Below are positions 5,952 to 30,323 of a stretch of DNA of 37,413 bases, one piece after another. The notes below the pieces were generated by a model that searched no databases, was not told the origin of the DNA, and worked only from the letters and a program-made list of their open reading frames with translations. This DNA comes from Deltaproteobacteria bacterium RIFOXYA12_FULL_58_15. Its GTDB lineage: Bacteria; Myxococcota; XYA12-FULL-58-9. The stretch lies in contig MGST01000218.1 in assembly GCA_001798605.1 (NCBI GenBank), positions 1 through 37,413 on the forward strand, in the 5' to 3' direction. A program made the position numbers and the translations under genes. The stretch's first letter is position 1. Every line of letters begins with the position of its first letter.

Positions 5952-5997
5952 CAGTGGCACCAAGGTGTCACGCGATAGGCGCGGAGGCAACGAGGGG

Positions 5998-8900
5998 ATG
6001 ACTGCGACCATCTTGGGGGGGCGCTATCGGGTCACCGGTGCCTTGGGGGCAGGTGGACAGGGCGAGGTTCTGTCCGCCGAGGATACTTGGTGTGCCAACA
6101 GCCAAGTGGTCCTCAAACGTGTGTTGCAGACTGCCCGTGAATCACTTCGAGCTGAGTTTTCTGCGCTCCGGTCGTTGGTTCATCCTGCTTTGGTGGAAGC
6201 ACGCGATTTCGGCGTTTTTGCGGGTGAGTGCTATCTCGTTGAGGCATTTGTGTCCGGCGTCGAGTTGGCAGTTTGGGCCCAGGGGCGGTCGGCCCGAGAG
6301 GTCGCCCTGGCCTTGGCCCCGGTGGCACACGCCTTGGCGCATCTGCATGCGAGAGGTCTCGTGCACATGGACCCGAGCCCTGCCAACATTCTTATGGCAG
6401 ATGCCTCCGCTGTGCTGCTCGACCTCGGACTTGTTCGACCCATGGGGGTGGCCGGTGCCGCTGGGACGGTGGGCTTTGTTGCTCCGGAGGTGCTGGCGGG
6501 GGAGTCGGTTGCTGCCGCAGCTGACGTGTACGGACTTGCGGCAACGATGGCGTTTGTTCTCGGCGGCTCGGCACCGCAAAGTCACCGTTTGTTTGAGCTG
6601 TCGAAGATTGAAGACGGGGAAGTTCGACGGATCTTGGCTGATTGCCTGAGTCACTCACCTGCTTCGCGGCCAACGGCGTTGGAACTGTCGAGGCAGCTGA
6701 CTGAGTTGGGTGGAGCGAACCGGGCACCTTGGGCGCGACCATTGATGCAGCTGCCATTGTGCGGACGGGAAGGTGAGGCGTCTGATTTCGAGCGATGGCT
6801 GTCCGAGGGAACGGGAGCGTTTGTCATCGGCGGCAACTCCGGCTCGGGAAGAACCGCATTTGCCGATGCCTGCGCCGACCGTGCGCGAATATCAGGGTTC
6901 GCCGTTCTTGCCGTCTCGGCTGACGACCCCCGTGCTCTAGAACGGCTTGTGGGGCAGGCCATGGCCGTGGCGGCAGCGAGCTCTATTGGATTTGGGGATC
7001 TGAACGCCGCGCTCGGCGACTTTGTCAGGCACACGCTTTTGTCTGCAGATGCGCAGCGAGTGCGAACAGCGACAGAGAATGCTGAACTTGCCGTCTTGGC
7101 CTTGGATACATTGGGAAGAGCGACACCCACCTTGGTCGTTGTCGATGAGACGGCCGCCGCTGACGAGGCGTTGACCCGAGCCATTGCTATCTGGCGCGCG
7201 CGGCGGGTCGACGTGGGGTCAAGGTTCCTGTTGGTGGTTGACTCACTTGCCGACGTGAACGTCGAGATGACGCCGCTCTCGGAGTCGGCCGTTCGGCAAC
7301 TGCTCCATTTGTCGTTTGCCGAGGAACGTCCCACCGCAGAGGCGGAACATTTGTTGAACGTCTTTGGGGGTACGCCTCGCCTGCTCTTGGGCGCCCTGCA
7401 ACGGCTCGGTCGCGATGGAGGGAGACTACTAGATCTCGATGCGGGCACGTCTGAAGTTGTTATCGAACTACCACCGGGACTTGCTCCTTTGGCGCTGACC
7501 CGGGAAGCCGTTCCCGAGGCCGTTGTGCGTGAGCTCATCGGCGACGATATCTATGCCACGTTACAGCTGGCATTGCACAGTGGTGCCTTGCGTTTGCAGC
7601 GCACCGGCGATGGAGCATCCTATCTGGTGCCAGAGTCTGTGCGTCTGCCGCTCTTGCGACTTGCCAAGGCTTCAGATCACGCGATGTTGGCGACGGCTTT
7701 CGAGTCAGCCAATTTGCACCTGAATGCGGCATCGAGCTGGGCTCAGGCCGGTGACTTGTCTCGGGCGATCCGGTTGCTGCAATCAACCGTGGGGGCTAGA
7801 GCGGATGAAAGGTTGCGGGCGATTTCCGGGGTCGCGGCGCACAGCGAGGACTTGCCGCAGAAGTTGGTCGAGGAGTGGGCTCGCCTCGCCTCGGCGGCGG
7901 CCAACGTTGAAGCCATGGGGGCGGCTGCCGCCATGCTCAAGCGATTGGGTCAGGCAAAACAGGGGCGACGCCTGATGGCGGCGTGCCAGGTGAAGCTCGG
8001 CAGGTACCGAGAGGCTCTGGCGACTCTTGATGGCTGCGAGTTGGACGACGAGGGCAGAGCGGTGAAGGCCCGTGCGCTTCTTTTCTGTGGCAAAGCCAAA
8101 GAAGCAATGCAGATTGCGTCAACATGGCGTGAGGCGAACGTAGAGGCGCGCGCAGATATGCTCGATGTTCTCGGGCACAGTGCCTTTGCCACGGGAGATG
8201 TGGAGGCCGCAAAGGCTGCGTTGGGTGAGGCACTGGCGCAGGCGGAGGCCGTCGGCGATCCCATCGCCCGCGCGCGGGCGCAAAACGGACTTGGCATCGT
8301 CATGCAACGGACCGGGGAGTATGAGCAGGCCCTTGAGCTGTATCGGGCAGCCTTGCGCAATGCAGGCACGCTGGGCCGTGTGACCAGAACCGCAAATCTT
8401 GCCACCTTGTTTCAGGACATGGGAATGATGGTCGATGCTAGGGAGCAATACACCCAGGCTCTATCTGAAGCCGTGGCGTTGGCGAACGTAAGGGAACAGG
8501 TCCGGGTCGGTGTCAATCTTGCCAATCTCATGGTGCTGCTCGGCGAGCTGGGGTCGGCGATCCAGCTGGCACAGCAGACCCTGCAGTTGAGTGTGGCGGA
8601 TGGCTCTGACCATGCCGCAGTCATGGCTTGCTTGGTACTGTGTGAGGCACGCCTGGAGCGTCAGGATCACCAGGCCGCGGGTGAATCTCTGGAAAAGGCA
8701 GTTGAGCTCATTGGCGGCGTAGAAGATCGGGTTGCGCGGGCCGAGCTCGATCTGCTTCGAGTGCGGTGGCATGTGGCACGAGGCGAGCTGGAATTGGCAG
8801 CAGCCCATCTCGGCCAGGTGGACGTTGCGGCAGGTGCAGCGCACTTAGCTCGTCAAATCGCCTTTTGGCGCTCATACATTTGTCTCGCAAGCGGACAGCC

Positions 8901-10800
8901 GAATCCAGAGCAAGCAAGACAAGCCTATGAGTTGGCGGTTCGGGCCAAGGACGACGAACTCAGGTGGCGGGCTGCGGCGCTTTGGTGCCGCGCTTGCGAC
9001 CGAACGGGCGACGAGTACGGACCTGAATGTCGGGTTCTGGCACAAGGTGCGCTGGACGCTTGGCTTGATCGTCTTCCACCCAATCTGCAGACGAGCTATC
9101 TCGCCTGCGCATCCCGTAAAGAACTTGCCCAGTGGGTGAGGAGTGTTGCCATGCCAGTCAGTCAGGTTGGGCCGGTGGCGTATCGGCGCATCCTCGGAAT
9201 CAATCGTCGTTTGGCCCGTGAGCACGAGGTTGGGCCTCTGTTGGAGCTGATTGTCGACGCCGCCATCGAGTTGCTGGGCGCTGAGCGAGGTTTCGTGGTG
9301 TTGCGTGACGGTGACGGAGTGCGGGTCGCGGTGGCACGCCAATTTGACAAACGCTCCCTTGAGGACGGGCGACAACGAATCAGTCGATCAATCGCGCTCG
9401 AGAGCCTTCGTACCGGCGAGGCCATTCTAACGACCAACGCCCAACAGGATGACCGTTTCGCAAACATAGCCAGCGTGGCCATGCTCAAGGTTCGTTCGGT
9501 GGTCTGTGTTCCTCTCAGAGGCATGGCGCGAGAGGATGATCCGGTTATTGGTGCCCTCTACCTCGATCATCGCTTTCAAGAGAGAGCTTTCACCGATGAT
9601 GATGTCGAGTTTTGCGAGTCGTTTGCCGATCAAGCAGCAATAGCTCTCGAGAACGCGCGGCTGTTGGAGAGGACACGGGAACAAGAACGGCGACTGGCGG
9701 CACAGAACGAGCGTCTCGAACGGCTCAACAAACAATTGCAAAATGAGGCGGCTCAATACGCGGCCGAAGCGGAAGATGCGCTGCGCCGATTACGTGAGGA
9801 GGGACCGACTGTTGGTGTAGGCAAGGGATTCGAACGGATGGTGGGCAGATCAGACAAGCTGCGAGAAGCACTGCGCATGGTCGACCGTTTCGCCGACACC
9901 GATGTGCCCGTGGTCATTTTTGGTGAATCGGGGACTGGCAAAGAACTTATCGCACGCGCAATTCACGAGCGATCGAGTCGTGCCAACAAACCCTTTGTCA
10001 GTATCAACTGCGGTGCCATTCCGGAAAACCTCATTGAGAGTGAGCTCTTCGGTTACAAGCGGGGAGCTTTCACCGGTGCTGTTCGTGACAAAGCAGGACT
10101 GCTCGCGGCGGCGAATCACGGAACTCTGCTGTTGGACGAAATTGGGGAGATGCCCCTGACGATGCAGGTCAAGATGCTCAGGGTATTGCAGGAACGAGAA
10201 TATCGACCCGTGGGAGCTACCGAGAGTGTTCCAGCCAATGTGCGAGTGGTGAGCGCTTCCCACGAGAACCTGGAAGAGATGGTGGCGAACGGCCGGTTCC
10301 GCGAGGATTTGTTCTACCGATTGCGTGTTGTGGAGATTTGCGTCCCACCTTTGCGGGAGCGGCGGGAAGATATCCCGGCGCTCGTCGACCATTTTTGCCG
10401 ACAGGTCGGTGGCAAAACCGGCGAGGAGTGCTTCTCGAACGCTGCCCTTGCACGGCTGCTTGGTTACGACTGGCCGGGGAACGTTCGCGAGCTCGAAAAC
10501 GAAGTGAGGCGTGCCTTGGCACTCTCCGACGACGTCGTCGATCTCGGCGGGTTGTCGGAACGGTTTCAAACCATCCGTGCCGCGGGGGCCGCGACCTTGG
10601 CGGACACAGCGCGCGGGTCTCTCAAGGACATCGTCGAGGGGTTTGAATGTCAGGTCCTGCTGGCGACTCTTGGAAGAAATGGCTGGAACGTCCGACAAGC
10701 AGCCAAAGACCTCGGACTGTCGCGGGCCGCATTCTACACGCGGCTCAGCAAGTATGGCATCACCCGTGAGGGCCATTCGTTGCCGACTGTGGGGCGATGA
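5998..10800 (+). CDS. Multidomain Ser/Thr kinase - AAA ATPase - TPR - GAF - sigma54 activator fusion
   Basis: A 1600-residue regulator. In order: a Hanks-type kinase (about 4-240) with Gly loop GALGAGGQGEV, Lys40, Glu53, HMD in place of HRD (Asp125, Asn130) and DLG in place of DFG (Asp142); a STAND/AAA_16-like NTPase whose P-loop reads GNSGSGRT (279-286), with Arg where Lys is expected; an alpha-helical region with TPRs (about 600-1000, clearest at 720-900); a GAF domain (about 1075-1230); a coiled coil; a sigma54-interacting AAA+ domain (from about 1281) with GESGTGKE (1309-1316), GAFTGA (1356-1361) and LLLDEIGEM; and a Fis-type helix-turn-helix at the C-terminus. It should activate sigma54 RNA polymerase in response to ligand sensing and/or phosphorylation. 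The ATG at 5998 is preferred because kinase domains usually start close to GGRYRV; an in-frame GTG at 5965 is possible. Kinase output and ligand are unknown. Confidence 0.93.
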   Translation: MTATILGGRYRVTGALGAGGQGEVLSAEDTWCANSQVVLKRVLQTARESLRAEFSALRSLVHPALVEARDFGVFAGECYLVEAFVSGVELAVWAQGRSAREVALALAPVAHALAHLHARGLVHMDPSPANILMADASAVLLDLGLVRPMGVAGAAGTVGFVAPEVLAGESVAAAADVYGLAATMAFVLGGSAPQSHRLFELSKIEDGEVRRILADCLSHSPASRPTALELSRQLTELGGANRAPWARPLMQLPLCGREGEASDFERWLSEGTGAFVIGGNSGSGRTAFADACADRARISGFAVLAVSADDPRALERLVGQAMAVAAASSIGFGDLNAALGDFVRHTLLSADAQRVRTATENAELAVLALDTLGRATPTLVVVDETAAADEALTRAIAIWRARRVDVGSRFLLVVDSLADVNVEMTPLSESAVRQLLHLSFAEERPTAEAEHLLNVFGGTPRLLLGALQRLGRDGGRLLDLDAGTSEVVIELPPGLAPLALTREAVPEAVVRELIGDDIYATLQLALHSGALRLQRTGDGASYLVPESVRLPLLRLAKASDHAMLATAFESANLHLNAASSWAQAGDLSRAIRLLQSTVGARADERLRAISGVAAHSEDLPQKLVEEWARLASAAANVEAMGAAAAMLKRLGQAKQGRRLMAACQVKLGRYREALATLDGCELDDEGRAVKARALLFCGKAKEAMQIASTWREANVEARADMLDVLGHSAFATGDVEAAKAALGEALAQAEAVGDPIARARAQNGLGIVMQRTGEYEQALELYRAALRNAGTLGRVTRTANLATLFQDMGMMVDAREQYTQALSEAVALANVREQVRVGVNLANLMVLLGELGSAIQLAQQTLQLSVADGSDHAAVMACLVLCEARLERQDHQAAGESLEKAVELIGGVEDRVARAELDLLRVRWHVARGELELAAAHLGQVDVAAGAAHLARQIAFWRSYICLASGQPNPEQARQAYELAVRAKDDELRWRAAALWCRACDRTGDEYGPECRVLAQGALDAWLDRLPPNLQTSYLACASRKELAQWVRSVAMPVSQVGPVAYRRILGINRRLAREHEVGPLLELIVDAAIELLGAERGFVVLRDGDGVRVAVARQFDKRSLEDGRQRISRSIALESLRTGEAILTTNAQQDDRFANIASVAMLKVRSVVCVPLRGMAREDDPVIGALYLDHRFQERAFTDDDVEFCESFADQAAIALENARLLERTREQERRLAAQNERLERLNKQLQNEAAQYAAEAEDALRRLREEGPTVGVGKGFERMVGRSDKLREALRMVDRFADTDVPVVIFGESGTGKELIARAIHERSSRANKPFVSINCGAIPENLIESELFGYKRGAFTGAVRDKAGLLAAANHGTLLLDEIGEMPLTMQVKMLRVLQEREYRPVGATESVPANVRVVSASHENLEEMVANGRFREDLFYRLRVVEICVPPLRERREDIPALVDHFCRQVGGKTGEECFSNAALARLLGYDWPGNVRELENEVRRALALSDDVVDLGGLSERFQTIRAAGAATLADTARGSLKDIVEGFECQVLLATLGRNGWNVRQAAKDLGLSRAAFYTRLSKYGITREGHSLPTVGR

Positions 10801-24335: not shown

Positions 24336-24761
24336 TTATTGTCCGCGCCGCATCTTCGCTACGGCATCTTTCATATCGCGAAGGCGAAGCGCTCGTTCGA
24401 CGGTGTCCACCAAGTCATCGACGCGCCAGGGTTTGGCAACGACGTGGGCGATGAGCCCTCGGTCTTGGGCCTCGAAAACATCTCTGAGCTCGGGATAACC
24501 GGTGACCATGACGCCGATGATTTCAGGGTTCTTCTTCTTGGCTGCCTCGAGGAACTCGACGCCATTCATTTTGGGCATGGAGAAGTCTACGAGCGCGACG
24601 TCGACATGACGATCATCGAGGATTTTCAAGCCCTCAGAACCCGAGAGTACGGTGATGACATCGAATCGATCTTTTCGCTTGAACACGCGTGCCATCAGAT
24701 CATTGTTGTGCGTTTCATCGTCAACGCTGAGAAGCACGATCTTGGTCTGTGGAGACGTCAT
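24336..24761 (-). CDS. Single-domain response regulator (CheY/PilZ-free receiver), tail of the signalling cluster
   Basis: A 141-residue stand-alone receiver. Acidic pair in SVDDE (Asp14, Asp15), phospho-acceptor Asp59 in VALVDFSMPKMNG, Thr in VMVTGYPE and Lys in VVAKPW are all present, so it should be phosphorylated. No output domain. The ATG at 24761 overlaps the last four bases (ATGA) of the histidine kinase gene, which indicates coupled translation and makes the kinase its likely partner. Just after the receiver there is a short amphipathic tail. The next gene on the other strand, glgM, ends 23 bases away, convergently. Confidence 0.92.
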   Translation of the reverse strand: MTSPQTKIVLLSVDDETHNNDLMARVFKRKDRFDVITVLSGSEGLKILDDRHVDVALVDFSMPKMNGVEFLEAAKKKNPEIIGVMVTGYPELRDVFEAQDRGLIAHVVAKPWRVDDLVDTVERALRLRDMKDAVAKMRRGQ

Positions 24762-26092
24762 CGATCCTCGGCCGTACTCGTTTGGTTGTCGCCAATGGGG
24801 AGCCATACCGTGAATGTAGAACCCTGGCCCACGGTGCTTTCGGCCGTGAGGCTGCCGCCGTGTGCGTTGACAATTGAATAGGAGATCGACAGTCCCAGTC
24901 CCGTCCCTTTGCCCACGGGCTTCGTGGTGAAGAACGGGTCGAACACCTTGAGGAGGTGTGCTTCTGGTATGCCGGGGCCGTTGTCGGCCACCCCTATGGC
25001 AACACCATTCTCCCTGCGCGAAGCGGAGATGGAGACCGTGCCATTGCCATCGAGTGCCTGGACCGCGTTGGCGATGAGGTTCATGAAGACCTGATTGAGC
25101 TGCCCCTCATTGGCCATAATTGTCGGCACGTCTGTGCCGTAATTCTTGTCTATCGTTGTGCCCTTGCGGGTCTCGTGGCTCAACAAGCTGAGTGTCGTGT
25201 CGATGCAGGCGCGCACGTCAACTGGGCCGCGATCGGTCACACCGCTGTGAATGAAGCGACGAAGGTCTTGAATGATCTTGGAAGCACGCTCCGCGCCATT
25301 CCGAATCGAATGCAATAGTTTGCTGGTGTCGGCGCGGATGTACTCGTAATCGAGGTCAGCCTTGAGCGTGCCGATCTTGGTCGCATCCTTCTGCTGCAGC
25401 GTGCAGGCGTCGTATTTCTCAATGATCTGTTGGAAAGTGCCGACGTAGGTATCCAAAAAATCCAAATTTCCGTAGATGAAGTTTATCGGGTTGTTGATCT
25501 CATGGGCGATCCCAGCCACCAGTTGTCCGAGTGATGACAACTTCTCCGATTGGATAAGTTGCGCGCGTGTCTGGCGCAATTCGCGGAGGGATCTTTCCAG
25601 GTCGGCGGTTCGGAGCTTGACCTCCTCCTCGAGGGTGGCTGCTCGTTGGCGTTCCCGCTCGAGCAACCCTTTGTATCGCTCCTGGATACGGGCTTCTGCC
25701 GTGACGTCGCGGTAAACTTCGAGAACGGCAAGGGTCTCGCCATTCTCTGTGATGGGGACCGCTGTGACGATGAGGGTGCTATCCTCTGCCGAACCCAGCG
25801 GGGAAGAACCGCGAATCTCGTCGACCCGAAAGGCGCGCCGCGACGACATCGTGCGTTTGGCCAGGCAAGCGGACGAACAGATGCCTAGGCGGAAAAGGTC
25901 GTTGCAATGGGTGTCGTCTTGCCGAGCGAGCCCAAGCAAGCGCCGTGGACGAACTCCTACGGCGTGCGCGTACGCTGCATTCCAAGCGAGAACACGCAAC
26001 TCTGTGTCGACGATGACTGCCGCATCAGCAAGACCGTCGAGCAGCGCGGCAACTTGGGCGATGGCCGGACTGGAAATCTCTGCCGTTTGCAT
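24758..26092 (-). CDS. PAS-domain sensor histidine kinase, cytoplasmic
   Basis: A 444-residue histidine kinase without membrane segments. Residues about 12-135 form a PAS domain ([19 protein letters not shown]) with a Cys-bearing segment, [19 protein letters not shown], typical of redox or metal-sensitive PAS-4 domains. A coiled coil (about 140-185) leads to the phospho-acceptor His197 in [14 protein letters not shown], and the ATPase domain has [10 protein letters not shown] (N box), VADNGPGIP (G1), and [13 protein letters not shown] (G2). It should autophosphorylate and pass phosphate to receiver 24336-24761, whose start overlaps its stop. Its ATG abuts the stop codon of the STAS-like gene with no gap, so the three or four genes are one unit. 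Substrate of the PAS domain is unknown. Confidence 0.93.
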
Positions 26093-26569
26093 TTACGTGC
26101 CCGCGTCAAGAAATGCAAAATAGCTATCCTCAATATCGTCAAAAACCATCTCGTCGTGGCATTTACCGCAGGTGGTTCCGGTGAGCTCCGGGAAGGTGCC
26201 GTCTGCAACGTTCAGAATACGCTCTTCTTCGTTTCCACACGAGTCACAGATGAACGGAGCGACCACGGACACGATCTTGGCGTGTCCTACAAAGTTGCTG
26301 ATCATGTTCAACTGGGACACAACCACCGGCGAGCAATCCTCCAACTCGATCTGAATCTCAGCAGGTATTTCGCGAACGAAATTCACCCATTCGCGCACTC
26401 CGCAGGAATTGAGTGCGCCAATTCCTTTGAGACTGATGACCACGTGTTGGCGTGTCTTGATCGTGGCGAGTAGCGATTCGAAGTCGGCGTCTTCATTGAC
26501 AGAGCCTTGAAGAACAATCCGCATGGTGTTCTCAACGTCTGTTGCCGTCCAAGTCAACGAGGTGCTCAC
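26093..26569 (-). CDS. Stand-alone STAS-like / zinc-ribbon module
   Basis: A 158-residue protein. Residues about 15-105 resemble a STAS domain, the fold of anti-sigma-factor antagonists: [38 protein letters not shown] (with Ser at the place of the phospho-Ser motif DSSG; Asn54-Ser55-Cys56-Gly57) and a conserved Trp61. The final strand leads to FICDSCG (Cys108, Cys111) and TTCGKCHDE (Cys134, Cys137), a likely zinc ribbon. Two more copies of the same pair occur in the kinase at 28149-30323. The GTG at 26569 overlaps the upstream stop (GTGA), which fixes the start; upstream codons in the same frame cover the preceding gene. It is expected to be the antagonist partner of the ATPase domain protein just upstream, but this is inferred. 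Confidence 0.8.
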
Positions 26570-27525
26570 GGGTTCCGCTCCTGGAGAAAGATGTTCAATG
26601 ACTTCGGGCGTTCCGCAAAATCCCGGAAGGAGCCAGAGATATCCATGACTCCGATCATTTCTGTACGGTATTCGGGCGAAAGATTGATGATGAATTGGTT
26701 CAAGGATTCGAAGATGTAGTAGAGCCCCAAACCGGCACCGCCGTCTTTGGTATCGATTTGGTCTATGCCCTTCGAGAAGCATTTGCGCAAATACGCGAGG
26801 ACGGTCGCTCTTTCCATTCGGCCGAAGTTGTCTCGAACCGACATGACAAACGATCTGCCGTCACATGCGTAACGAAAAAGGACATGCTCATTGGGTTCGA
26901 GAGAGATTTTTTCAGCACGAGATATTGACGCGTACTTGGGGTTGCCGTTGGCATCCGCCGGTGCGTTGTAAACGGCATTCATGATGAACTCATCGGCGAC
27001 GCTGCGTGCACGATTGATAAGGCGTCGGTTGCAACCAATGCGGTCGAGATAATGCTCCAACGCGTTCAATTGTGTTTCTTTGTCTTCGCAGGAGTTGGTT
27101 ATCGTATTTTCGATGATCTCGGCACCCCACGTCAGGTATTTCTCGAGACCGAACACGTCGTTCTTGATGATTTTCTGCACAGTCACGACGAGCTCATTGC
27201 CGCTCAGATCATCGGTTTTGGCAATGAGGTTGGTGAGCACCTGGTTGTCGAGCAGATCGAGGAAGGATTCTCTGTCCTTGCTCGAGGTGACCACCAGCAC
27301 GGGTGGGGGTTTCTCTTGTTTGGCGAGTTCTTTCAGCAACTCCTGCCCCGTTTGATCAATGAAGTCATAGTCGAGAACGATCAGCTGATAGCGACCGTCA
27401 AAAGATGCGTTCGGCTTATCAAATTCGACATCAGCGCCAGTGGCACAAAGCACCTTAAAAAGAGCTTGTCGTTGTTTTGCGTTCCCCCACAGGAGGAGAA
27501 TTAGCCTGTCGTTGTTGTCAACCAA
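26566..27525 (-). CDS. Receiver-like domain fused to RsbW-type HATPase domain
   Basis: A 319-residue protein. Residues 1-125 look like a receiver (LIVLDYDFIDQTGQELL with Asp52/Asp54; VLVVTSSKD; LIAKTDD) but the usual acidic pair near residue 10 is missing (LILLLWGN), so phosphorylation is uncertain. Residues about 150-305 are a GHKL ATPase domain of the anti-sigma kinase type: N box ADEFIMNAVYNAP (Glu179, Asn183), G1 VRDNFGRM and G2 GGAGLGLYYIFESLNQ. There is no histidine phospho-acceptor domain. Such proteins phosphorylate STAS partners, and the STAS-like gene overlaps its end by four bases (GTGA). TTG at 27525 is the start because GGGAG lies 6 bases before it. It is the probable core of a partner switch. 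Confidence 0.88.
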   Translation of the reverse strand: MVDNNDRLILLLWGNAKQRQALFKVLCATGADVEFDKPNASFDGRYQLIVLDYDFIDQTGQELLKELAKQEKPPPVLVVTSSKDRESFLDLLDNQVLTNLIAKTDDLSGNELVVTVQKIIKNDVFGLEKYLTWGAEIIENTITNSCEDKETQLNALEHYLDRIGCNRRLINRARSVADEFIMNAVYNAPADANGNPKYASISRAEKISLEPNEHVLFRYACDGRSFVMSVRDNFGRMERATVLAYLRKCFSKGIDQIDTKDGGAGLGLYYIFESLNQFIINLSPEYRTEMIGVMDISGSFRDFAERPKSLNIFLQERNP

Positions 27526-27631
27526 CTTTCACTCCCATGAGTACCAAACTCCAATGCCTACGAAAGCTCACAGGAGCCATGTAGTCAAGTCCCACTGAGG
27601 GAGACGCCCGCACAGTAGGTAACAACCCATT

Positions 27632-28027
27632 TCAGACACCATATTTCGCCGCTTGGGGCACCAGCTCGAGAGCCGCCTCGATCACGGCGACGAGTTTTTC
27701 TGCTTTGACTGGCTTGACCAAATAGTGGTTGATTCTGCACACATTGATCGCACTGAGGATGTCGGCTGTATCCGTGTAGGCACTGAGGATGATCTTCACG
27801 GCCTTGGGGTTGATCGCAATACTCTTCTTGAGAAGTTGCGTTCCGGACATTCCCGGCATGCGCTGGTCGGTGACAATCACATCAACCCGGTTGTCGCGAA
27901 GGAGTTGGACTGCTTGCTGGCCGTCGTCGGCGCGAAGGATCTTGTATGCCTTGAGGATTCGCTCAAGAAGATCGAGGTTGTTGACGTCGTCATCGACAAT
28001 CAAAACAACTTTGTCCGCGTTCGACAT
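27632..28027 (-). CDS. Single-domain response regulator with canonical receiver
   Basis: A 131-residue receiver with every classic residue: acidic pair in IVDDD (Asp12, Asp13), Asp54 in VIVTDQRMPGMSG, Ser82 in ILSAYTD and Lys105 in YLVKPVK. It has no output domain. The ATG at 28027 has AGGGAG at a spacing of about 5 bases. A promoter with a perfect TTGACA lies about 45 bases upstream, so it and the following genes may form their own unit. The HATPase gene starts 106 bases downstream; the kinase gene lies 121 bases upstream. No DNA-binding partner is obvious, so it may be a phosphate relay or a protein-interaction switch. Confidence 0.93.
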   Translation of the reverse strand: MSNADKVVLIVDDDVNNLDLLERILKAYKILRADDGQQAVQLLRDNRVDVIVTDQRMPGMSGTQLLKKSIAINPKAVKIILSAYTDTADILSAINVCRINHYLVKPVKAEKLVAVIEAALELVPQAAKYGV

Positions 28028-28049
28028 CTATGCTCCCTGGCAGTCCGAT

Positions 28050-28078
28050 CGAGTATTCGCCTTTGCGTGGGTTGTCAA
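28050..28078 (-). promoter_or_regulatory. Candidate promoter for the receiver gene 27632-28027 and downstream genes
   Basis: On the minus strand TTGACA (28078-28073) is followed after exactly 17 bases by TACTCG (28055-28050), which shares only the first TA with TATAAT. It lies in the 121-base gap after the STAS-kinase gene and about 23 bases before the start codon at 28027. The -35 and spacing are good, the -10 weak. Confidence 0.45.
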
Positions 28079-28148
28079 GTTAGAGGTAGACCAATTGGTT
28101 CCCTGGCGTACGTTCCTTGCCCTTTTCGCCCAATCGGCACGAATCGAG

Positions 28149-30323
28149 TTACGTTTGCTGGATGCTGGCTGCCCGCAATCGAAAGAATTGAGCGATTGGT
28201 TCAGGGTCAACAGTGTGAAGAGCGTCAACAAAACTGCTTGCGCCTTTGCCCATGAAAAACTCATTTTCGAATTGTAATTCGTGACTGTACAACTCGCGGG
28301 CAAAGCTGCTGAGATCAGTGGGGCCGCCGATTTTCAAGGCTGCCCGTCGCAACGCATCTTCGAGGGTGGCTGCATTCTCAAAACGCTTGTCGGGCTGTTT
28401 GTCCAGACAACGGTCAATAATCTTGGCGAGACGCCGGGGAACCTTTGAACCAAACCAAGGCCGTTTGATTTTTTCGTCGAGGATGGCGTGCGCTGTGGCC
28501 TCGATGCTCGAGCGGTGGAACGGGACGGTTGCGGTGAGCATGGCTTGCAGTAGCAAACCCACACCCCAGATGTCTGTTTGTGGCGTGGCCTCTTTGCCAC
28601 GGTACACTTCGGGGGCAACCCAGGGGGGACTACCCAAAATGGTGCGTCGATCCCATTTGGAACGACGATATCCGGCCAGTCCAAAATCGACGAGCTTCAC
28701 AGTTCCGTCGAAGCTGACCAGTACGTTGTTGGGAGTGATGTCGCGGTGAACCAACACACGCCCGACGGTATCCGGCGCGTGTGCTCTCGCCAGCCCACGT
28801 GCCAGATCCGCAGCGATATTGGCGGCAAGGGCAGGGGTGACGGTTCGACTTTTTGAGACCAACTCGGACATGATTTGTGCAAGGCTTCTGCCATGCACAT
28901 ACTCGAGCACCATGTAGAGTGATCCGTCTGAACGACCGAGGTCGTAGACACGAATGATGTTGGCGTGATCCAATCGGGCGGCGAGCTTCGCTTCGTCGAG
29001 AAACAGACGGACCATCCGGTCGTCGGTGAGGAGCTCCGGGCGAATCTTCTTGATGACGGCGAGGCGTCGAAAGCCCATAGGACCATGTTGCCTGACCAGG
29101 AAGACTTCGGCCATGCCGCCTTCGGCGAGCTTGCACAGCACCTCGTACTTGTCAGCGAAGCTCTCGGCTACGGCGACTGGTTCCGGCCGCTCAACCGTCG
29201 GCTGGGGAATGGCGGGCGCTGTCGAAGCGACCTGGAGAGAGTCTCTTTGGGACGCCGCTGCGGCGAACGCACGCCAGTCGGCGGCTCGATCCTTGACGGC
29301 CAATGGGGTGTCGCACCGAGGGCACTTTGGCGGGCTTTTCAGGGCGCTTTCAATTGACTGCAGCGGAATCGTCGAACGAACCAGTTGTTTGCATTTGCCA
29401 CATTGTGCGGCGAGTCTGAGGCTCGTCACTTCGGCACCGGCGACGAGTGAGGGGTCGTTGACAAACTGACGCAGTACCGGCGGCGGGCACCCCACCAGGG
29501 ATACTCCACCATCATTTGCCAATTGGCGGATATCTTTGCGCCAGGTGTCGAACCCCGAAGGATCGAAATGGGTAACGTGGCCGAGTGCAAGCACGACGCG
29601 CTGGCCGCTCGACGCGAAACGCAACGGCGAGAATGCATCGGTAATCATTCCGGAAAGCTCGAAACGTGGCACAGAGGATTCCGTGGATTGCCGTGCTGCG
29701 AGCCGGACTCCAGGTACTTCCTGAATCCAGCTCTCTGACTTACGCAGCAGGCCAATCACGCTCGCCGGTGGTGGGGTGTATGTGGTCGACCGCACATACT
29801 CGAATAGCACCGATGGGTCATCGTCGAGTTCTGCGTCGTTACCACACAAACAGCATTGACGAACCGGAGCCTCACCGGAATGGAATGCTTCCTGATCTAG
29901 TTGGGCATCAAATAGGGATGCGGACTGTTCACCGCACGTGTCGCACTCGTAATAAGCCTGGAAGGTCAAAAGGGTGCCGCCACCATCGAAACCCACCACC
30001 ATATTGAACTGGTCGGTGATTCGAGGAGAGCAACGGACGAAATACACACCTTCCACGCGCCCACGAATCGCATTGAGGGCTTGGATCCAATCCCTCACGC
30101 CAAAAGAGGCCACATGGGTAATGTGTGCCAGGTCAAAAACAATGTGTTTGGCGTCCCCGGGGTCGAGCAGTGCTGGATCGAAACCCTCATCCAGCCGTCC
30201 GCGCAGACCTCGGAGAAGGGCTTCCTCATGTCGGATCTCGCGCCACGCTTGCAGGCCAACCATATGAGCATGAACAGAACCCAGGTGGGACGTCCAGTCA
30301 AGTCCTTTGCCACGATCCGCCAC
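28149..30323 (-). CDS. Ser/Thr protein kinase with two N-terminal STAS-like/zinc-ribbon modules
   Basis: A 724-residue protein. Module 1 (about 33-180): STAS-like core with VASFGVRDW (72-79), CSPRITDQFNM, then Cys127/Cys130 (YECDTCG) and Cys157/Cys160. Module 2 (about 219-345): HFDPSGFDTW (252-261), CPPPVLRQF, then Cys308/Cys311 (AQCGKCK) and Cys334/Cys337 (PKCPRCD). Module 1 resembles the stand-alone protein at 26093-26569, including a downstream DD and F-x-Y. Residues about 393-665 form a full Hanks-type kinase: AEGGMAEVF loop, Lys425, Glu444, VHRDITPNN (Asp528), VDFGLA (Asp546) and APEVYRGKEATPQTDIWGVG, so it should be active. No membrane segment. The GTG at 30323 has no good ribosome binding site; ATG at 30263 is an alternative that keeps all domains. 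It lies 172 bases after the PEP carboxykinase gene. Confidence 0.88.
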   Translation of the reverse strand: MADRGKGLDWTSHLGSVHAHMVGLQAWREIRHEEALLRGLRGRLDEGFDPALLDPGDAKHIVFDLAHITHVASFGVRDWIQALNAIRGRVEGVYFVRCSPRITDQFNMVVGFDGGGTLLTFQAYYECDTCGEQSASLFDAQLDQEAFHSGEAPVRQCCLCGNDAELDDDPSVLFEYVRSTTYTPPPASVIGLLRKSESWIQEVPGVRLAARQSTESSVPRFELSGMITDAFSPLRFASSGQRVVLALGHVTHFDPSGFDTWRKDIRQLANDGGVSLVGCPPPVLRQFVNDPSLVAGAEVTSLRLAAQCGKCKQLVRSTIPLQSIESALKSPPKCPRCDTPLAVKDRAADWRAFAAAASQRDSLQVASTAPAIPQPTVERPEPVAVAESFADKYEVLCKLAEGGMAEVFLVRQHGPMGFRRLAVIKKIRPELLTDDRMVRLFLDEAKLAARLDHANIIRVYDLGRSDGSLYMVLEYVHGRSLAQIMSELVSKSRTVTPALAANIAADLARGLARAHAPDTVGRVLVHRDITPNNVLVSFDGTVKLVDFGLAGYRRSKWDRRTILGSPPWVAPEVYRGKEATPQTDIWGVGLLLQAMLTATVPFHRSSIEATAHAILDEKIKRPWFGSKVPRRLAKIIDRCLDKQPDKRFENAATLEDALRRAALKIGGPTDLSSFARELYSHELQFENEFFMGKGASSFVDALHTVDPEPIAQFFRLRAASIQQT

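What the first reader, a model, noticed from the sequence alone, without database searches (positions are those of the whole stretch)
24336..30323. Six-gene signalling locus that mixes a Ser/Thr kinase, partner-switch parts and two-component parts
Seen: minus-strand order kinase with two STAS-like modules, receiver, receiver-like plus RsbW-type ATPase, STAS-like module, PAS histidine kinase, receiver. The last four genes overlap (GTGA, ATGA) or abut with no gap. Known: RsbW-type ATPases phosphorylate STAS proteins; histidine kinases phosphorylate receivers. Inferred: the locus couples His-Asp relay to a Ser-based partner switch, with the Hanks kinase as a further input or output. I know of no named system with this set and order.
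Basis: partly seen in the sequence, partly recalled or inferred. Interest (0 to 1): 0.8.

Follow-up and report, generated by a model that had tools for sequence, protein, structure and literature searches.

The report
Zinc-STAS partner switch with Hanks kinase
A run of six bacterial signalling genes encodes a protein-kinase switch whose parts (an RsbW-type kinase, zinc-ribbon STAS proteins, a eukaryote-like kinase and a histidine kinase) recur together across predatory and social bacteria, suggesting that several signalling languages are wired through one switch; this wiring has not been tested in the laboratory.

Summary
The six genes are real and the cluster is not chance. The ATPase (26566-27525) is an RsbW/SpoIIAB-type kinase behind a receiver fold that has lost its acidic pair. 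In 22 genomes this rare module lies within 3 kb of such an ATPase at 24 of 42 loci (0.12 expected), and four relatives carry both in one chain. The Ser matching the SpoIIAA phospho-acceptor is kept in 14/14 first STAS modules of the Hanks kinases and 47/48 free modules, but in 2/14 second modules. Relatives add the missing SpoIIE phosphatase; the gene after the STAS protein is a PAS-histidine kinase or a PAS-GGDEF enzyme. Five of six genes keep their order in a relative of another family; receiver 27632-28027 is dispensable, and a same-family genome lacks the ATPase gene at this place. Best reading: a partner switch whose clients are a Hanks kinase and a PAS enzyme rather than a sigma factor. 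The switch core is well supported; client control and direction are inferred. Related mechanisms are known (LvrB-LvrC, HsbRAD, SiaABCD, SypE-SypA), and STAS-kinase fusions were noted in Sorangium in 2010. New variant of a known kind.

The parts
28149..30323 (-). Hanks Ser/Thr kinase with two N-terminal STAS-CxxC..CxxC modules (724 aa)
   Evidence: kinase K425, H526-R527-D528, D546-F547-G548 invariant in 12 relatives; model kinase domain matches PknB
29784..30251 (-). first STAS + four-cysteine module of the kinase (about residues 25-180); putative phospho-acceptor Ser73 (codon 30105-30107); Cys 127, 130, 157, 160
   Evidence: Ser invariant in 14 of 14 kinase relatives; four Cys invariant
29289..29705 (-). 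second STAS + four-cysteine module (about residues 207-345), Ser position replaced by Pro; Cys 308, 311, 334, 337
   Evidence: Ser kept in only 2 of 14 relatives
28350..29150 (-). protein kinase domain (about residues 392-658)
   Evidence: Pfam PF00069 3.2e-43
27632..28027 (-). stand-alone canonical receiver (131 aa); not found at this place in any relative locus
   Evidence: D-D, D, S, K all present; absent from L048
26566..27525 (-). pseudo-receiver + RsbW/SpoIIAB-type ATPase (319 aa)
   Evidence: invariant E179, N183, D232, G235, G263, G265, G267
27151..27525 (-). degenerate receiver domain (residues 1-125): acidic pair replaced by W-G; Asp, Thr and Lys kept
26569..27150 (-). Bergerat-fold kinase domain (residues 126-319)
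26093..26569 (-). free STAS + CxxC..CxxC protein (158 aa); putative phospho-acceptor Ser55 (codon 26405-26407); Cys 108, 111, 134, 137
   Evidence: 37% identical over 164 columns to the STAS half of the natural fusion in L112
24758..26092 (-). PAS (Cys-rich) histidine kinase (444 aa), HisKA and HATPase_c
   Evidence: 48% identical to its counterpart in L048; PAS plus linker 41% identical to a PAS-GGDEF protein at the same place in L085
24336..24761 (-). stand-alone canonical receiver (141 aa)
   Evidence: 47% identical to its counterpart in L048

Best explanation
The locus encodes a partner switch whose clients are signalling enzymes rather than a sigma factor. The ATPase (26566-27525) is the switch kinase. 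It binds and phosphorylates the free STAS-zinc-ribbon protein (Ser55) and the first STAS module of the Hanks kinase (Ser73), and the two STAS partners compete for it. A SpoIIE-type phosphatase, encoded elsewhere in this genome but inside the cluster in relatives, resets the Ser. The state of the switch sets the activity or partners of the Hanks kinase and, through the free STAS protein, of the PAS histidine kinase with its receiver (24336-24761); in relatives the PAS enzyme is a GGDEF protein instead. Shown by sequence: domain content, motif conservation, linkage, fusions, enzyme swapping. Inferred: the phosphotransfer, the competition, and that the PAS enzyme is controlled by (rather than feeding) the switch.
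For: STAS-zinc modules lie within 3 kb of this ATPase family at 24 of 42 loci in 22 genomes against 0.12 expected. Four natural chains carry pseudo-receiver, ATPase and STAS-zinc together. The fusion fold is confident (pLDDT 84.8) and matches SpoIIAB and SpoIIAA. The Ser equivalent to SpoIIAA S58 is kept in 14/14 first STAS modules, 47/48 free, 4/4 fused, and lost in 12/14 second modules. The ATPase N-box Glu and Asn are invariant. SpoIIE phosphatases lie within 8 kb of 23 of 106 ATPase loci, overlapping the ATPase gene in Bdellovibrionota L147/L155, whose order is phosphatase, ATPase, STAS, PAS-HK, receiver. STAS-STAS-kinase genes sit beside the ATPase in 11 loci. The PAS of 24758-26092 has 8 of 18 relatives within 3 kb of a STAS-zinc gene against 0.07 expected, with HK or GGDEF outputs swapped behind the same PAS. 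No sigma factor family appeared among the commonest neighbours.
Against: No phosphatase gene in this locus. In the same-family genome G001 the ATPase gene is absent between kinase and STAS genes, and the kinase frame is interrupted there (L166), so the arrangement is not indispensable. 56 of 106 ATPase loci have no STAS-zinc gene nearby, so the ATPase family has other partners. No complex was modelled or measured. The Ser could be kept for structural reasons. The neighbour scan cannot exclude single sigma-factor genes.
Confidence: 0.58

Rival explanations
1. Ordinary anti-sigma switch: the ATPase is an anti-sigma factor like LvrC, the STAS proteins are its antagonists, and an unlinked sigma factor is the output. 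The Hanks kinase is an extra antagonist or an input.
For: [quoted passage not shown] RsbW and SpoIIAB are anti-sigma factors.
Against: No sigma factor family among the commonest neighbours of 85 scanned genes. STAS modules are fused to or followed by signalling enzymes, as in systems with non-sigma outputs.
Confidence: 0.18
2. The histidine kinase is the input: it phosphorylates a receiver of the locus, which then steers the ATPase or an unlinked phosphatase, and the Hanks kinase is the only output.
For: Both stand-alone receivers are canonical; His-Asp input into such switches is known in Lvr (PMC13269768) and in the HptB-HsbR-HsbA cascade (PMC5085249).
Against: The receiver fused to the ATPase lacks the acidic pair here and in nearly all relatives. 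The PAS enzyme at this position is often a GGDEF protein, which cannot be a phosphate source.
Confidence: 0.22
3. The STAS-zinc modules are metal or redox sensing and docking domains, and the Ser switch is a relic: the four Cys bind zinc and hold the enzymes together as a scaffold.
For: Four Cys invariant in both STAS modules of all aligned kinases although the second module lost its Ser; the PAS also has conserved Cys/His.
Against: Bdellovibrionota relatives lost the Cys but kept the Ser and the gene order; linked SpoIIE phosphatases imply a live phospho-switch.
Confidence: 0.08

Closest known systems
LvrA-LvrB-LvrC of Leptospira (PMC13269768, structure 9QIH)
   Same: Receiver fused to an RsbW-like Bergerat domain, partnered with a histidine kinase; best structural match of the fusion model. 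Leptospiraceae homologues L149, L151-L153, L158 sit next to a histidine kinase gene.
   Different: LvrC's receiver is canonical and is phosphorylated by LvrB; no STAS, Hanks kinase or phosphatase is described in the passages read. Here the receiver is degenerate and STAS proteins are present.
SiaABCD of Pseudomonas aeruginosa (PMC7647112)
   Same: PP2C phosphatase, switch kinase, STAS-like target and diguanylate cyclase form a partner switch with a non-sigma output. L112 (Cache-HAMP-GAF-SpoIIE, ATPase-STAS, PAS-GGDEF) has the same logic.
   Different: No Hanks kinase, histidine kinase or zinc-ribbon STAS mentioned in its abstract.
HptB-HsbR-HsbA-HsbD of Pseudomonas aeruginosa (PMC5085249, PMC6482189)
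   Same: His-Asp signalling reaches a STAS protein that binds a diguanylate cyclase.
   Different: Different gene set; no Hanks kinase and no STAS-kinase fusion in the abstract.
SypE-SypA of Vibrio fischeri (PMC8256260, PMC10120452)
   Same: A response regulator with serine kinase activity phosphorylates a STAS protein on Ser56.
   Different: SypE is a dual kinase and phosphatase; no Hanks kinase (own knowledge).
STAS domains fused to eukaryote-like kinases in Sorangium cellulosum (PMC2887360)
   Same: COG1366 (STAS) domains fused to Hanks-type kinases in a myxobacterium, noted in 2010.
   Different: No ATPase partner, phospho-site, zinc ribbon or mechanism in the passages read; a genome-level remark.
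SpoIIAA-SpoIIAB / RsbV-RsbW of Bacillus
   Same: Same two folds, same phospho-Ser position, same kinase N-box.
   Different: Clients there are sigma factors; no four-cysteine tail and no kinase fusion (own knowledge).

Membership tests
Partner-switching module (RsbW-RsbV-PP2C type) | Bergerat-fold switch kinase with N-box Glu and Asn and glycine-rich lid | tested here: met
   Invariant E179, N183, G263, G265, G267 in 18 relatives; fold match to SpoIIAB
Partner-switching module (RsbW-RsbV-PP2C type) | STAS substrate with phospho-acceptor Ser/Thr | tested here: met
   Ser55 and Ser73 at the SpoIIAA S58 position, kept in 47/48 free and 14/14 first kinase modules; phosphorylation itself not measured
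Partner-switching module (RsbW-RsbV-PP2C type) | PP2C (SpoIIE/RsbU-type) phosphatase that resets the STAS protein | tested here: inconclusive
   None in the locus; two strong SpoIIE proteins elsewhere in the genome; linked in 23 of 106 relatives
Partner-switching module (RsbW-RsbV-PP2C type) | Client exchange between partners dependent on phosphorylation | not testable with these tools
   Needs biochemistry
Anti-sigma factor switch | Cognate sigma factor | tested here: inconclusive
   None among the 25 commonest neighbour families; single or unlinked cases could be missed
LvrC-type Rec-regulated anti-sigma factor | Canonical phosphorylatable receiver fused to the Bergerat domain | tested here: not met
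   Acidic pair is W-G; Asp, Thr, Lys kept
Two-component system | Histidine kinase with HisKA and HATPase_c, plus canonical receivers | tested here: met
   receivers 24336-24761 and 27632-28027 canonical; phosphotransfer not tested
Hanks-type Ser/Thr kinase | Catalytic Lys, HRD and DFG motifs | tested here: met
   PknB-like fold

The most novel reading that the evidence does not exclude
STAS-zinc-ribbon modules are a general phospho-switch adaptor that places a Hanks kinase (by fusion) and PAS-controlled enzymes (histidine kinase or diguanylate cyclase, by neighbourhood) under one RsbW-type kinase and SpoIIE phosphatase, so that Ser/Thr-kinase, His-Asp and cyclic-di-GMP signalling meet in one switch across Myxococcota and, in part, Bdellovibrionota.
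Probability: 0.45. Interest if true: 0.78.

Novelty: new variant of a known kind. Interest (0 to 1): 0.58.

Why it matters
Myxobacteria hold very many Hanks kinases (96 in M. xanthus and 315 in S. cellulosum, PMC2887360), and how they are controlled is largely unknown (own knowledge). A STAS module with a conserved phospho-Ser, fused to the kinase and encoded beside its presumed switch kinase, gives a direct, testable control mechanism. If the PAS enzyme is also a client, the same switch would join Ser/Thr-kinase, His-Asp and cyclic-di-GMP signalling.

Tried and rejected
Chance clustering: rejected by co-localisation counts. A single-protein genome scan with the ATPase found nothing; repeated with a small alignment it gave 80 loci. 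An alignment of nine sequences was too diverse for the genome scan, and the viral scan found none. Longest-ORF gene calling failed in GC-rich relatives because antisense frames won; replaced by domain-guided calling. The large kinase at 5965-10800 was checked as a possible kinase-SpoIIE protein like those beside the ATPase in L051 and L087; it is instead a kinase, AAA, TPR, GAF, sigma-54-activator protein and is not counted as part of the system. A profile search of the PDB with the ATPase alignment gave almost only receivers; fold comparison was needed. The sigma-70 promoter scan found none. No model of a two-chain complex could be made with these tools.
Full report
OBSERVATION. The six minus-strand genes exist as described and the overlaps are exact. 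Pfam gives clear kinase, receiver, PAS, HisKA and HATPase_c matches, and weak STAS and HATPase_c_2 matches for the two key proteins. The window is part of a 6.37 Mb, 381-contig draft genome. It lies in the same order as G004, whose contig matches a record titled Myxococcota bacterium in contig length and locus, so Myxococcota is inferred.

ANATOMY. The STAS parts are more than STAS: each of the three modules (two in the kinase, one free) ends in CxxC...CxxC, with all four Cys invariant in the aligned sets. I call this STAS-zinc; the metal is inferred. The SpoIIAA Ser58 position is Ser in 14/14 first kinase modules, 47/48 free modules and 4/4 ATPase-fused modules, but in 2/14 second kinase modules. 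The Hanks kinase keeps its catalytic motifs and models as a PknB-like kinase. The ATPase has an invariant N-box Glu and Asn. Its receiver domain has W-G in place of the acidic pair, and only 1 of about 100 aligned relatives scored as canonical; the Leptospiraceae ones were cut short at that end of the alignment, but the start of L149 reads VEDSES, as a canonical receiver would. The two stand-alone receivers are canonical.

RELATIVES. The ATPase was matched in 21 of 58 relatives and 77 of 195 phylum genomes, many of these matches covering only the ATPase domain. A genome-wide scan gave 80 loci, mostly titled Myxococcota or Deltaproteobacteria, then Bdellovibrionota, with SAR324, Leptospiraceae and a few others. 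In G004 (L048) the order is kinase, ATPase, STAS, PAS-HK, receiver: five of six genes, without 27632-28027. In the same-family genome G001 (L166) kinase, STAS and PAS-HK are adjacent, but the ATPase gene is missing between them and the kinase frame is interrupted. In Bdellovibrionota L147 and L155 the order is HAMP-SpoIIE, ATPase, STAS, PAS-HK, receiver, with the first two overlapping.

LINKAGE STATISTICS. In 22 genomes, nearly all chosen for having the ATPase, STAS-zinc modules form 42 loci; 24 lie within 3 kb of an ATPase, against 0.12 expected under uniform placement. About seven of the 24 loci supplied seeds of the STAS model; leaving those out still gives about 17 of 35. Of 106 distinct ATPase loci, 50 have STAS-zinc within 3 kb or fused, 11 have STAS-kinase within 3 kb and 23 have SpoIIE within 8 kb. 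These counts depend on my own domain models and gene calling. Four chains fuse pseudo-receiver, ATPase and STAS (L055, L057, L059, L112). For L112 the fold is confident and matches LvrC, SpoIIAB and SpoIIAA.

OUTPUT SWAPPING. The PAS and linker of 24758-26092 are 41% identical over 160 residues to a PAS-GGDEF protein that follows ATPase and STAS in L085. PAS-GGDEF proteins lie near the ATPase also in L087, L093, L094 and L112. Outside the window, 8 of 18 relatives of this PAS lie within 3 kb of a STAS-zinc gene, 0.07 expected.

MECHANISM. The simplest reading is a partner switch with enzyme clients: the ATPase phosphorylates free STAS and the first kinase STAS module, a SpoIIE phosphatase resets them, and the two STAS partners compete. 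In this genome the phosphatase would act from elsewhere; two strong SpoIIE proteins exist. Enzyme outputs of STAS proteins are established in SiaABCD (PMC7647112) and HsbA-HsbD (PMC5085249). Rivals are an LvrC-like anti-sigma role (PMC13269768) and a histidine-kinase input. No sigma factor family stood out among 85 neighbours, but single cases could be missed.

WHAT IS KNOWN. STAS fused to eukaryote-like kinases was remarked on for Sorangium in 2010, along with a few phosphatase-kinase gene links (PMC2887360). Receiver-RsbW combinations are known (SypE, LvrC). In eight searches of an open-access library I found no description of the STAS-zinc module or of this gene set; absence from that library is weak evidence.

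VERDICT. New variant of a known kind; interest 0.58.

Noticed in passing
window 5965-10800 (+): 1611-aa protein joining a Hanks kinase domain, AAA ATPase, TPR, GAF and a sigma-54 activator with Fis-type HTH.
   Followed up: partly
window 25672-26053 (-), and L080, L085, L087, L094, L112: The PAS domains share a Cys pattern (CH or CN, then C, then C three or four residues on) in both histidine kinases and GGDEF proteins; a metal or redox sensor is possible.
   Followed up: partly
L051:3533-8839 (-), L087:2382-7535 (-), L093: About 1700-aa proteins with a Hanks kinase at one end and a SpoIIE phosphatase at the other, with an AAA ATPase between, encoded close to the ATPase gene.
   Followed up: partly
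L065:3612-4901 (+), G000 contig C341: A paralogue of the ATPase in this genome is fused to a PilZ domain and flanked by receiver genes, suggesting a cyclic-di-GMP link.
   Followed up: no
L146, L147, L148, L155: Bdellovibrionota STAS proteins kept the Ser and the gene order but lost the four Cys.
   Followed up: partly
L166:7950-10118 (-), G001 contig C29: In the same-family genome the kinase gene is broken in frame and the ATPase gene is absent from the locus; assembly error and decay were not distinguished.
   Followed up: partly
L083, L084: The ATPase gene follows a TPR protein and a short exported protein in two MAGs; phosphonate-binding-like proteins recur among ATPase neighbours.
   Followed up: no
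L094: Record titled Bifidobacterium breve carries a cluster of this kind; probably a mislabelled or mixed bin.
   Followed up: no
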